Positions 2 through 11,332 of a stretch of DNA of 26,536 nucleotides are shown one piece after another (position 1 is the stretch's first letter; the number at the start of each line of letters is the position of its first letter). Location: IMG/VR virus record IMGVR_UViG_3300048011_000240, positions 1-26,536 of that record. One strand, 5' to 3'. The translations under genes were made by a program, and so were the position numbers. The notes beneath the pieces were generated by a model. The model saw only the letters and a program-made list of their open reading frames with translations. It was not told the DNA's origin and did not search any database. The DNA comes from a virus.

Positions 2-385
2 CCAAATGATTTAAGCAATATGAGCCATGATGACTTTTTTATGGTTTATAAAAGAATATTACAAAAAACTTATTCTAAATTAAAAAATAACCGTTTTGCA
101 GTTATTGTGATGGGCGAAGTAAGAAACAAAAAAGGTCAGTACATCGGCACTATTCCTAAAACAATAGAAATAATGGAAAGCGCAGGCTATAAATATTACA
201 ACGAAATTATTTTAGTAAACAGCGTTGGCACACTTGCATTGCGCTCTGGCAAACAAATGCAGGCCAGTAGAAAAGTCGGCAAAATTCATCAAAACGTGCT
301 TGTGTTTGTTAAGGGTGACGCCAGTGTTGCCGCCGATGAACTAGGCGAAATAGAAATAAATTTAGAGGAAGCAGATGGAGACTAA
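2..385 (+). CDS. DNA modification methyltransferase, C-terminal part (5' truncated by window edge)
   Basis: The reading frame is open to the window edge: the codons before the first ATG (base 20) read PNDLSN, so the gene starts upstream and the ATG at 20 is internal. The visible part resembles the C-terminal half of phage N6/N4-type DNA methyltransferases: an NDLSNM segment of the kind that follows the catalytic DPPY region, a strand RFAVIVMGEVR, then a block around LVNSVGTLALRSGKQM and the ending RKVGKIHQNVLVFVKGD, which is very typical of these enzymes. The catalytic DPPY motif itself is outside the window. Such enzymes transfer methyl groups from SAM to DNA, often to protect phage DNA from restriction. 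The last 11 bases overlap speD, which suggests translational coupling. Target base and site are unknown. Confidence 0.75.
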   Translation, partial: PNDLSNMSHDDFFMVYKRILQKTYSKLKNNRFAVIVMGEVRNKKGQYIGTIPKTIEIMESAGYKYYNEIILVNSVGTLALRSGKQMQASRKVGKIHQNVLVFVKGDASVAADELGEIEINLEEADGD

Positions 386-713
386 AGGCTATCATGTCAT
401 AGCAGACGTTTGGTTAAACGAGTACCCAGAAGATAACATTGCTGAAGTGCAATTAGGTATTGGCGAAGCTATAGAAGAATATTTAACTATTGTAGGCTTT
501 AAAGACCACCAGTTTAACGAACAAGCATTTACAGCCGTTTGGTTATTATCCGAAAGTCATTTTAGCATTCACACCTACCCAGAGCGCAATTTTGTTAGTT
601 TAGATTTATATACTTGTGGAGAACGCGCCGCATCAACTTTGCAAATAATGGGTGACATAATGGGAAACTTCAACGTAAAAGAAGCAAACGTAAAGGTAAT
701 TAATCGTGGTTAA
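375..713 (+). CDS. speD: S-adenosylmethionine decarboxylase proenzyme (SpeD family)
   Basis: AdoMetDC makes decarboxylated SAM, the aminopropyl donor for spermidine synthesis. The 112-residue protein has the core of the short bacterial/archaeal class: LLSESHFSIHTYPE at residues 57-70, in which Ser61 is the expected self-cleavage residue that becomes the pyruvoyl cofactor, His66 the processing histidine, and Cys81 in DLYTCG the catalytic cysteine. These correspond to Ser63, His68 and Cys83 of the Thermotoga enzyme, with the same spacing. All key residues are present, so it should be active. GAGGAA lies just upstream of the ATG, inside the end of the methyltransferase gene, which it overlaps by 11 bases. 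Both enzymes use SAM. No spermidine synthase gene is in the window, so the host would have to supply it. Confidence 0.93.
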   Translation: METKGYHVIADVWLNEYPEDNIAEVQLGIGEAIEEYLTIVGFKDHQFNEQAFTAVWLLSESHFSIHTYPERNFVSLDLYTCGERAASTLQIMGDIMGNFNVKEANVKVINRG

Positions 714-4583: not shown

Positions 4584-5795
4584 ATGGCAAAACTATTTAA
4601 TAGAGCCAAGATGAACACCTCAACGACTGGGGCGGGAACCATTACGTTGGGCAGTGCAGAAACAGGCTTCCAAAGTTTTGCTGATGCAGGCGTAGCAAAT
4701 AGCGATGTTGTTCAATATGTCATTGAGGATGGCTCAAGTTGGGAAATAGGAACTGGTACTTATAGTTCTAGTGGAACAACATTGACACGTTCCCCTACTG
4801 AAAGCAGTGGTGGCGGTAGTGCGCTATCCCTCAGTGGTAGTGCAAAAGTTTCTATTACTGTTATTGCTGATGATTTTAAAAGGCTACAATTAGCAGGGGC
4901 TACAAAGGCAGAGGCTACTTCTGGCGGTTTAGATGTTACTGGAAATATTGTTGTTAGTGGCAATGTTGACGGTAGAAATGTTGCTAGTGATGGCACAAAA
5001 TTAGACGGCATTGAAGCAAGTGCAACGGCTGACCAAACTAACGCAGAAATAAGGGCGGCAGTGGAAGCGGCTTCAGATAGTAATGTGTTTACTGATGCTG
5101 ACCACACTAAGTTGAATGGCATTGCGGCTAGTGCAACTAATGTAACTAATACAAATCAGCTAACAAATGGCGCAGGGTTTCTTACTGGATTTTCTGGTAT
5201 GACTTCAAGTCATGTAGTTAATTCTTTAGGATTTACGCCTCTTGCCCCTGATGATGACGCTCAATTAAATTCTCTTGAAATAGGTGATACATCAGGTCCA
5301 ATATTACAGGAAGAGCGTAACCAAAATTTAAGGATTAAAGGTAGCAGTAGTACAGATTGCGGTATTGTCGGTATTGGTTCAAATAATGCGTTTTGTTTTC
5401 AATTATATGGCGCAGGCAGTCAACATGGATTTTTAAGGTCTACTTGGGGTTCTTGGGGTGCTTATGCTGACACTAGTGGAAACTGGACTGCCACAGGAAA
5501 TGTCACAGCGTATTCAGATGAAAAACTAAAAGACAATATTGAGCCAATAGAAAACCCTATCGAAAAGATAAAAGCTATCCAAGGTGTAACTTATAACCGT
5601 AACGACATTGAAGGTAATCCACGACAAACTGGTGTTGTTGCCCAACAAGTCGAAAGAGTTTTGCCAGAGGTGGTTATGACTAATGACGAAGGAATAAAAA
5701 CCGTAGCTTACGGAAATATGGTTGGCTTGCTAATCGAAGCAATAAAAGAACAGCAAGATGAAATAGAGCGACTAAGAGCGATACTTGAGGGTTAA
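4584..5795 (+). CDS. tail fibre with C-terminal S74 self-cleaving chaperone
   Basis: A 403-residue trimeric-fibre-type protein. Its N-terminal and middle parts are Ser/Gly/Thr-rich with fibre-like repeats ([37 protein letters not shown]). The last ~95 residues are an intramolecular chaperone of peptidase family S74: [11 protein letters not shown] with the Ser311/Lys316 catalytic pair at the family's usual spacing, then [15 protein letters not shown] and a final coiled coil ([23 protein letters not shown]). In this family the chaperone guides trimer folding and is then cut off in front of the Ser, so the mature fibre should end near residue 310. AGGAG precedes the ATG. Role: host-surface recognition. 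It opens the fibre cassette. Confidence 0.9.
5723..5749 (+). repeat. near-identical 27-base segment, copy 1 (fibre chaperone end)
   Basis: Twenty-six of 27 bases match the segment at 8633-8659. Both encode the GLLIEAIKE-type stretch at the end of an S74 chaperone. Flanking DNA is much more diverged, so this is a short conserved block shared by two fibre genes. Confidence 0.8.
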
Positions 5796-7853: not shown

Positions 7854-8705
7854 ATGGCAATTAGTATTTCAAAACCGACTATTGGAGGTAGTGAGGGAAC
7901 ATGGGGGCAAACAATCAATGATGCGCTTGATGTAATTGTCAATGCCGCTAATGGTACGACAGGCACGATTGCGCCAAATTTAACAACAATAACAATAAAC
8001 GGTGTTTCTAGTAGCGTAACAGCCCCTAAATTAGATTTATTAAACAGTTTAAGCACTTCTGGAACTGTTATGCAAAGTTTTGTTTTAGAAGATGGTGATG
8101 GAACAGAAGTAACTATTACCGAAGGTAAAGAAGTTAAGTTTGTAGAAGGTCACGGTATAGACATTAACTGGACTGACACTTCAACAGGTTCAGACGCAGA
8201 CCCTTACGATTTAGAGTTTTCGCTTAAAACCGATATGCGAATAAACAGTAATACAGATGTTTATACTGGCAATTCTAACGACTACATTCATTATGATACT
8301 GATGTAGGTATGCGTTTTTATACCAACCAAGCTGAAGATATGCGGCTGACAGACGGTGGAGACTTGCACGTTGATGGAAATATTATTGGTTATTCTTCAA
8401 CAATTTCTGACCAAAGGTTAAAGGGCAACATTAATAAAATAGACAACGCATTAGATAAACTCATGCAAATTAATGGTTACACATTTACTTATAATCACGA
8501 TGGAAAGCAAAGCGCAGGGGTGATAGCGCAAGAAGTTGAAAACATTATGCCAAGCGCAGTTCAAAGCACTAATTTAGTTTTTAACGAAGATAATAATGTT
8601 GAGTTTAAAACAGTGCAATATGACCAACTTCATGGCTTGTTAATCGAAGCAATAAAAGAGTTAAAAGCTGAATTAGAGGAACTTAAAAATGCCTCTGCCA
8701 AGTAG
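7854..8705 (+). CDS. second tail fibre with C-terminal S74 self-cleaving chaperone
   Basis: A 283-residue protein starting AISISKPTIGGSEGTWGQTINDALDVI, a frequent opening of phage fibre proteins, followed by Thr/Asp-rich beta regions. The C-terminal ~99 residues are a family S74 chaperone: SSTISDQRLKGNI with Ser185/Lys190 as the catalytic pair, QSAGVIAQEVENIMPSAV, and a terminal coiled coil ([20 protein letters not shown]). Cleavage before Ser185 would leave a short mature fibre. TAGGAG lies upstream of the ATG. It shares the chaperone type and a 27-base near-identical block with the fibre at 4584-5795, so the two are paralogues at least in this domain. Its end overlaps the next gene by 17 bases. 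Confidence 0.88.
   Translation: MAISISKPTIGGSEGTWGQTINDALDVIVNAANGTTGTIAPNLTTITINGVSSSVTAPKLDLLNSLSTSGTVMQSFVLEDGDGTEVTITEGKEVKFVEGHGIDINWTDTSTGSDADPYDLEFSLKTDMRINSNTDVYTGNSNDYIHYDTDVGMRFYTNQAEDMRLTDGGDLHVDGNIIGYSSTISDQRLKGNINKIDNALDKLMQINGYTFTYNHDGKQSAGVIAQEVENIMPSAVQSTNLVFNEDNNVEFKTVQYDQLHGLLIEAIKELKAELEELKNASAK
8633..8659 (+). repeat. near-identical 27-base segment, copy 2 (fibre chaperone end)
   Basis: Partner of 5723-5749 with one mismatch. It lies in the coiled-coil end of the second S74 chaperone. Confidence 0.8.
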
Positions 8706-9505: not shown

Positions 9506-11332
9506 ATGCCTTTAGTACCACTAGATTTAAAAGCAGGGTTTTATAAAAACGGAACGGAGCTTGATGCTATTAACAGGTGGCATGACGGAAGTTTAGTCAG
9601 GTGGCGAGATGGCTCGTTACGGCCTATAGGCGGGTGGCAAAATTTTAAAAAAGGCTTTTGTGCAAATCCAATTAGAGGCGCACACGCTTGGGAAAGCAAT
9701 AACGGTACTGCATATTTTGCGGCGGGTAGTTATAACGAACTGACAGCAATGACAGGCTCAGGCATAACATACGATATAACGCCAACATCAATGTCTACTG
9801 GAAGGGAAGATGCAGGGTTAAATTTAGGTTTTGGCGGTGGATTTTATGGAACTGGGTACTTTGGAACGCAACGCCCTGCGACTGGTACATATTCTGAGGC
9901 AACAAGTTGGTCACTTGATAATTTTGGTCAATATTTAGTTGGTGTGCATTACGACACTGGAACGCTTGTAGAATGGCAATTAGGGTCTAGTGCCGTTGCC
10001 GCTCCTGTTGCAAATGCGCCAACTAATAATTTAGGTTTAGTTGTAACAGAAGAACGATTTATATTCTTGCTCGGTGCAGGCAGTAACCCAAGAAAAGTCC
10101 AATGGTGTGACAAGGAAGCAAATACTGTTTGGACGGCGGCGGCAACAAACGAAGCGGGTGACTTTACCTTGCAGACAACTGGTCAAATTATGCAGGGATT
10201 AAAAACCAGAGGGCAAACATTAATTATAACAGATAGCGATGCGTTTTCTGCAAAATATCTTGGACCTCCTTATGTCTATGGCTTCGATAGGGTTGGAACT
10301 TCTTGCGGGGCTGTTTCGCGTATGTCGGCAGTAGATACTGACCAAGGTGCTTTCTGGATGGGGCAAAAAGGTTTTTTTGGCTTCGATGGCAACTCTGTTA
10401 AAGAAATATCATGTGAAGTTCACGACTATGTTTTTGATGATATAAACGTCAACCAACAATCAAAAATTTGGGCTTGGAGCAACACAGAATTTAGTGAGGT
10501 GTGGTGGTTTTACCCATCAGCAAATAGTTTAGAAATAAATCGTTATGTTGCAGTAGATTTAGCTGAAAACCATTGGTTAATAGGTAATTTGTCAAGAACT
10601 GGTGGAGTTTCTAGGGGTGTTTTTAGAACGCCAATTATGAGTGGAGAAAATGCTGAAAGTTTTACTTATAATGTAACGGTGGCTAACTCTGGCGGTAATA
10701 AATATTTTATATCGGAACATTCTGGAGCCGCCCCAACACTTACATTTATAAAAGGAAACACTTATAGGCTAGACCAATCAGACGCTACTAATATCGGTCA
10801 TTTATTGCAGTTTTCTACAACTTCTAATGGGACACATGGCGGCGGGTCAGCGTATAGCACAAATGTAGTCACCACAGGTTCGGCGGGTAATGCAGGGGCA
10901 TACACAGAAATAACAGTTACAGATAGCACACCTACAACGCTTTATTATTATTGTACCGCTCATAGTGGAATGGGAGGAACAATAAACGTTATAGAGCCTG
11001 TTGCAGTTTTTAACCACGAACAAGGTCTAAATTATGATAATGGTGCTATTTTTTGCGAAACTGGACCAATTTCTATAGGCAACGGCGATGCTATTGCAAA
11101 AGTAACTGATGTTATACCTGACGAAAAAACACAAGGTGACGTTAATTTAAAATTTAAAACTAAGTTTTATCCTAACGATACCGAAACAACACATGGAACT
11201 TTTAACCCAAGTAACCCGACTTCTGTGCGTTTTACTGGCAGACAAATGAAAATGCGAGTTGAGGGAGACCAACCTACAGCGTGGCGAGTAGGAACAATGA
11301 AGCTAGAAACTAAATCGGGGGGCAGACGCTAA
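9506..11332 (+). CDS. nozzle-like tail protein with inserted cupredoxin-like domain
   Basis: A 608-residue protein. The start at 9506 (MPLVPLDLKAGFYKNGTELDAINRW) is preferred: an earlier in-frame ATG at 9365 would overlap the fibre gene by 140 bases and add an unrelated sequence. RWHDGSLVRWRDGSLRPIGGWQ and the C-terminal RFTGRQMKMRVEGDQPTAWRVGTMKLETKSGGRR are hallmarks of the P22 gp10/SU10-type nozzle or stabilisation proteins that continue the channel below the adaptor. Between residues ~380 and 500, just before the FNHEQGLNYDNG strand, lies an extra domain with FIKGNTYRLDQSD, GHLLQFST and YYYCTAHSGMGG. It resembles a type-1 copper fold with possible ligands His432, Cys483, His486 and Met489. 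The stop overlaps the next ATG by one base. Confidence 0.83.
   Translation: MPLVPLDLKAGFYKNGTELDAINRWHDGSLVRWRDGSLRPIGGWQNFKKGFCANPIRGAHAWESNNGTAYFAAGSYNELTAMTGSGITYDITPTSMSTGREDAGLNLGFGGGFYGTGYFGTQRPATGTYSEATSWSLDNFGQYLVGVHYDTGTLVEWQLGSSAVAAPVANAPTNNLGLVVTEERFIFLLGAGSNPRKVQWCDKEANTVWTAAATNEAGDFTLQTTGQIMQGLKTRGQTLIITDSDAFSAKYLGPPYVYGFDRVGTSCGAVSRMSAVDTDQGAFWMGQKGFFGFDGNSVKEISCEVHDYVFDDINVNQQSKIWAWSNTEFSEVWWFYPSANSLEINRYVAVDLAENHWLIGNLSRTGGVSRGVFRTPIMSGENAESFTYNVTVANSGGNKYFISEHSGAAPTLTFIKGNTYRLDQSDATNIGHLLQFSTTSNGTHGGGSAYSTNVVTTGSAGNAGAYTEITVTDSTPTTLYYYCTAHSGMGGTINVIEPVAVFNHEQGLNYDNGAIFCETGPISIGNGDAIAKVTDVIPDEKTQGDVNLKFKTKFYPNDTETTHGTFNPSNPTSVRFTGRQMKMRVEGDQPTAWRVGTMKLETKSGGRR

What the first reader, a model, noticed from the sequence alone, without database searches (positions are those of the whole stretch)
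10638..11004. Cupredoxin-like domain with a possible type-1 copper site inserted in a phage nozzle protein
Residues ~380-500 of the protein at 9506-11332 break the nozzle-type sequence just before its FNHEQGL strand. The inserted part has FIKGNTYRLDQ, GHLLQF and YYYCTAHSGMGG, giving His432, Cys483, His486 and Met489 in the order His...Cys-His-Met used by blue copper proteins. The Cys-x2-His-x2-Met loop is shorter than in plastocyanin. Sequences of this look occur in marine phage fibres, but a complete candidate ligand set inside the tail channel protein is unexpected. It may bind copper, sense redox or surface conditions, or be a structural relic of the fold.
Basis: partly seen in the sequence, partly recalled or inferred. 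Interest (0 to 1): 0.65.

Follow-up and report, generated by a model that had tools for sequence, protein, structure and literature searches.

The report
Blue-copper-like domain in phage tail nozzle
Part of this marine phage's tail-nozzle protein is an inserted module that is predicted to fold like small blue copper proteins and keeps their copper-holding residues; the same module recurs on virion proteins of many marine phages, which suggests that these viruses carry copper-binding domains on their tails, although copper binding has not been measured.

Summary
The 608-residue nozzle protein (9506-11332) carries an inserted domain (residues about 386-498, 10661-10999) just before the FNHEQGL strand. 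Of 90 related nozzles, 49 lack it, 30 carry it at this site and 11 carry it just after the HExG motif.

AlphaFold2 models it at pLDDT 95.6. Its best structural matches are cupredoxins: nitrite reductase N-terminal domain, small laccases, rusticyanin. His432, Cys483 and His486 align with the ligands of genuine cupredoxins; Met489 is offset by the shorter loop. The loop Cys-x2-His-x2-Met has amicyanin's spacing.

All 39 nozzle copies counted, and 99 of 106 non-redundant copies, keep the four residues. Exceptions are Met to Gln (a known blue-copper axial ligand) or two to four lost together. This argues for a working metal site and against a relic.

The domain is a recurrent module of marine phage tail proteins and of some marine cells' surface proteins. 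Best reading: a surface-displayed type-1 copper domain, six per nozzle, probably for host contact or stability. Copper binding and function are untested. I found no paper describing it in the open-access library searched.

The parts
9506..11332 (+). Nozzle (P22 gp10-like) tail protein gene, 608 aa, with inserted domain
   Evidence: phrog_3287 3e-76; PDB nozzle chains 9nwi_Y 1e-9, 8zkm_E, 8zkk_O by sequence; Foldseek of the full model 9nwi_Y 1.4e-21, SU10, P22 gp10
9506..10660 (+). Nozzle part before the insert (residues 1-385)
   Evidence: aligns with insert-free homologues
10661..10999 (+). Inserted cupredoxin-like domain (residues 386-498)
   Evidence: absent from 49 of 90 homologous nozzles; AF2 pLDDT 95.6; cupredoxin matches
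10799..10801 (+). His432, candidate first His ligand, just before a strand
   Evidence: aligned with the PHN His of plastocyanins; conserved in 95% of 111 cluster representatives
10952..10972 (+). Candidate C-terminal ligand loop Cys483-x2-His486-x2-Met489
   Evidence: Cys and His in register with cupredoxins; same spacing as amicyanin; conserved
11003..11329 (+). Nozzle part after the insert, starting with the AVFNHEQGL strand (residues 500-608)
   Evidence: HExG conserved in 34 of 34 nozzle sequences aligned, insert-free ones included

Best explanation
A cupredoxin domain has been inserted as a module into an exposed joint of the hexameric nozzle. It binds one copper ion per subunit through His432, Cys483, His486 and Met489 in a type-1 (blue) site with an amicyanin-length loop, giving up to six copper sites per tail. 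The domain is displayed on the outside of the tail, as it is on fibres and baseplate proteins of other marine phages and on lipoprotein stalks of marine archaea. There it most likely acts as a host-contact or virion-stabilising module whose fold or binding surface is set by copper taken up outside the cell. Shown by computation: insertion, predicted fold, ligand conservation, recurrence. Inferred: copper as the metal, exposure on the outside, and the role in contact or stability. An electron-transfer role is less likely, because no redox partner is seen among the annotated window genes.
For: AF2 model pLDDT 95.6, pTM 0.88; His432 lies just before strand 56-59 of the model, Cys483 ends strand 100-105, His486 and Met489 lie in the loop before strand 113-118, the cupredoxin order. 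Structure matches: 2dv6_A and 6tfo_C Z 10.0 over 105-106 residues, small laccases Z 8.6, rusticyanin Z 8.2; Foldseek best 4e-4, all cupredoxins. Profile-profile alignment to eight PF00127 proteins puts His, Cys and His in register, P 3e-5, against 0.099 at best for 20 column shuffles. 39 of 39 nozzle copies and 99 of 106 non-redundant copies keep all four; 100 of 106 have exactly one Cys; loss is concerted (5 groups lost two or more, 0.96 expected, 3 of 10000 permutations as high); the two single losses are Met to Gln. A genome scan with a ligand-free pattern gave 41 of 52 copies intact plus 2 with Gln. Two insertion positions in nozzles. Domain in fibre and baseplate proteins of marine phages and on archaeal lipoprotein stalks.
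Against: No metal analysis exists. Sequence similarity to known cupredoxins rests mostly on the ligands themselves: masking them drops the profile match to P 0.12. The window domain scores below the Pfam Copper-bind cut-off (17.6 of 21.2 bits). Structural matches also include copper-free cupredoxin folds such as factor VIII parts. The window copy has Leu at two nearly invariant family positions. Ligand distances were not measured. Position on the outside of the nozzle is inferred, as the full model is weak (pLDDT 71).
Confidence: 0.62

Rival explanations
1. Copper-independent adhesion module: an Ig-like or cupredoxin-like beta-sandwich that binds host glycans or proteins; the conserved His, Cys and Met are packing or hydrogen-bonding residues and no metal is bound in nature.
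For: Phage tails commonly carry beta-sandwich decorating domains, and the SU10 nozzle has four inserted Ig-like domains (PMC9509320). L064 carries another, CBM-like insert in the same protein. Some copies have lost the ligands and still exist. Assembly in the cytoplasm offers little copper (general knowledge).
Against: Packing residues would be expected to vary one at a time; here two to four ligands go together, and single changes are only Met to Gln in the representatives. One unpaired Cys kept in 94% of groups is costly unless it has a job.
Confidence: 0.22
2. Metal Trojan horse: the copper-loaded domain is presented to a host outer-membrane copper or metallophore receptor, as proposed for iron in phage tails.
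For: Iron in phage tails and a Trojan-horse route have been proposed (PMC11705849). The domain is confined to marine phages among 50,697 phage records: 68 hits, nearly all cyanophages, Pelagibacter, Methylophilales or marine virus records.
Against: No receptor is known here, and no adsorption data exist. Many copies sit in proteins not known to touch receptors.
Confidence: 0.1
3. Redox or electron-transfer device: the copper site senses redox state or exchanges electrons with host surface proteins to trigger tail opening.
For: Type-1 sites are usually electron-transfer sites (established for cupredoxins; amicyanin).
Against: No partner gene seen among the annotated window genes; the domain occurs in many unrelated tail proteins, which does not suit a dedicated trigger in the nozzle.
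Confidence: 0.06

Closest known systems
Cupredoxin superfamily, type-1 copper proteins with short loops (amicyanin; also rusticyanin, N-terminal domain of Hyphomicrobium CuNIR, two-domain laccases)
   Same: Predicted fold, ligand order His...Cys-His-Met, and the C-x2-H-x2-M spacing of amicyanin
   Different: Very low sequence identity (8-22% in structural alignments); His is usually followed by Pro, as in the laccase HPxHxH motif (from memory), not Asn; fused inside virion proteins; a C-x2-H-x3-M variant in about a quarter of copies
Marine phage tail-fibre domain in phrog_30742, phrog_27200, phrog_693 and phrog_677 (cyanophage and pelagiphage fibres, gp9-like connectors)
   Same: Same domain by sequence, 40-60% identical, same ligands
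   Different: There it lies in fibres or baseplate proteins; here in the nozzle, at two different positions in the family
Inserted nozzle domains of phage SU10 (PMC9509320)
   Same: Beta-sandwich domain inserted in the nozzle protein, presumably displayed at the tail
   Different: SU10 has four Ig-like domains between propeller blades 2 and 3; no metal site is described in the passages read
HxH iron sites of T4 gp37 and marine phage fibres (PMC11705849)
   Same: Metal carried on phage tails
   Different: Octahedral iron by paired His in a trimeric fibre, versus a predicted mononuclear copper site inside a folded domain

Membership tests
Cupredoxin fold | Greek-key beta-barrel or sandwich of seven to nine strands | tested here: met
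   AF2 model pLDDT 95.6 with nine strands; cupredoxin chains at Z 8-10 over 104-110 residues. Predicted, not solved
Type-1 (blue) copper protein | His...Cys-His-Met/Gln ligands at the right strand positions | tested here: met
   positions in the model, register with PF00127 proteins for His, Cys, His, conservation
Type-1 (blue) copper protein | Ligand side chains meet around one metal | not testable with these tools
Type-1 (blue) copper protein | Binds copper with an absorption band near 600 nm | not testable with these tools
   needs purified protein
Pfam PF00127 Copper-bind (plastocyanin/azurin) | Score above curated cut-off 21.2 bits | tested here: not met
   window domain 17.6 bits, E 0.0054; not filed as a member
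Pfam PF25489 At5g54830-like domain | Score above curated cut-off 27 bits | tested here: not met
   25 of 114 copies match weakly, best 22.6 bits
P22 gp10-like nozzle (phrog_3287) | Sequence and fold of phage nozzle proteins | tested here: met

The most novel reading that the evidence does not exclude
Marine phages carry a dedicated, virion-borne blue copper domain that has spread repeatedly among nozzles, fibres and baseplates, and copper loading outside the cell controls host attachment or tail opening, a copper counterpart of the iron Trojan horse.
Probability: 0.12. Interest if true: 0.85.

Novelty: new variant of a known kind. Interest (0 to 1): 0.62.

Why it matters
If copper is bound, an abundant group of ocean phages carries type-1 copper sites on its tails, and adsorption, particle stability and the marine copper budget would have an unstudied link. 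The with/without pairs of nearly identical nozzles make the role of the domain directly testable. The family also shows a natural experiment: coordinated loss of ligands and Met to Gln exchange. No curated family in Pfam or NCBIfam claims the domain above its cut-off, so many phage proteins named tail fibre, hypothetical or immunoglobulin domain could gain a specific, testable annotation.

Tried and rejected
Sequence search of the PDB with the domain profile gave only chance-level hits (pseudoazurin 3tu6 E 0.47, a SUMO entry at 0.0016 whose stretches are individually weak). Structural relic: rejected for the family as a whole because of ligand retention and concerted loss. Single origin of all nozzle copies: the domain tree places them in several spots among fibre copies and the backbone tree needs at least eight changes of state, but the AU test does not reject one clade (p 0.27), so repeated acquisition is likely, not shown; the test for site B plus long-loop site A did not finish. 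Ascertainment: two of the viral scans used patterns that include Cys and His, so the ligand-free genome scan is the fair count. Pfam At5g54830 and CBM_4_9 hits were considered and left aside as below cut-off. One scan failed on a stop codon in a guessed range and was not repeated.

Full report
What is there. The window is a 26.5 kb virus record with terminase, portal, scaffold, major head protein, fibres and an endolysin. The gene 9506-11332 encodes a nozzle protein: phrog_3287 at 3e-76, solved nozzle chains 9nwi, 8zkm and 8zkk by sequence, and Pa223, VP1, SU10 and P22 gp10 by structure. The coordinates given were out of frame; the domain proper is residues 386-498, 10661-10999.

The insertion. 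Relatives from IMG/VR split into those with and without the insert. Of 90 nozzles with both flanks, 49 lack it, 30 have it where the window does, before the HExGLN strand, and 11 have it just after that strand. L031, 78% identical, is a clean empty site. The backbone tree needs at least eight changes of state. The domain tree puts nozzle copies in several places among copies from other proteins, but one origin is not rejected (AU p 0.27).

The domain family. The same domain is found in 68 of 50,697 phage records, almost all phages of marine Synechococcus, Prochlorococcus, Pelagibacter or Methylophilales, in fibres, virion structural proteins and gp9-like baseplate connectors, and in hundreds of marine virus contigs. 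In cells it is found in marine genomes, for example as the C-terminal domain of Marine Group II lipoproteins behind a collagen-like stalk. This common thread is display outside the cell or on the virion.

Fold. With 107 relatives, AlphaFold2 gave pLDDT 95.6 and pTM 0.88. The best solved matches are cupredoxins: the N-terminal domain of Hyphomicrobium nitrite reductase (Z 10.0), small laccases (8.6) and rusticyanin (8.2). Factor VIII and ceruloplasmin parts with the same fold also appear, so fold alone does not show copper.

The site. Profile comparison with eight genuine PF00127 proteins aligns His432, Cys483 and His486 with their ligands (P 3e-5; shuffled controls at best 0.099); Met is offset because the loop is shorter. 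With the ligand columns masked the match is lost (P 0.12), so at the sequence level the similarity is carried by the site itself. The Cys-x2-His-x2-Met spacing is that of amicyanin, whose ligands are His53, Cys92, His95 and Met98 (PMC12723479). A minority has Cys-x2-His-x3-Met, 90 of 324 copies.

Is the site kept? Copies were collected with a ligand-masked profile. Of 106 non-redundant complete copies 99 have all four residues; two have Gln for Met; five have lost two to four at once, against 0.96 expected if losses were independent (3 of 10,000 permutations reach five), while the structural core residues of the losers are mostly kept. One hundred have exactly one Cys. All 39 nozzle copies counted are intact. 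Redundant single departures exist (L129 DCHL, L238 HCSM). The scan of bacterial and archaeal genomes used a pattern without ligands and gave 41 of 52 intact plus two with Gln. Concerted loss and the Met to Gln exchange, the natural axial variant of stellacyanin (from memory), fit a metal site and do not fit independent packing residues.

How it may work. SU10 nozzles carry inserted Ig-like domains that lie at the tail tip and rearrange on infection (PMC9509320). By analogy, and because both joints of the insert are poorly ordered in the full model, I place the domain on the outside of the nozzle, six per tail. I think it a copper-bound display module for host contact or stability. That step is inference. 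Trojan-horse and redox roles are less supported. A copper-free adhesion module is the main rival.

Literature. Searches of 5.39 million open papers for cupredoxin or plastocyanin-like domains in phage structural proteins found none. Subscription papers are not held, so this is a bounded statement.

Noticed in passing
L064:4001-6202 (also L320): This nozzle has the cupredoxin-like domain at the second site and a further insert of roughly 100-130 aa near residue 166 with a carbohydrate-binding-module-like sequence.
   Followed up: partly
L348, L349, L353, L355, L356, L358, L360: Marine Group II archaeal lipoproteins (lipobox, collagen-like DGADGADG stalk) end in the same domain with all four ligands. 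L357, labelled Acidiferrobacter, holds the same gene and is probably mis-binned.
   Followed up: partly
window 10736-10813: The window copy has Leu at two family positions that are otherwise nearly always Phe (YRLDQ) and Pro (GHLLQF).
   Followed up: no
L091:1474-1812 (cyanophage PSS2 gp080): A stand-alone copy of about 113 aa that has lost His, Cys and His but keeps the rest, annotated baseplate wedge subunit.
   Followed up: no
window 375-713: Gene similar to phage S-adenosylmethionine decarboxylase families (phrog_3125, 1.7e-19).
   Followed up: no
window 4584-5795 and 7854-8705: Two tail fibre proteins ending in the endosialidase-type chaperone domain Peptidase_S74.
   Followed up: no
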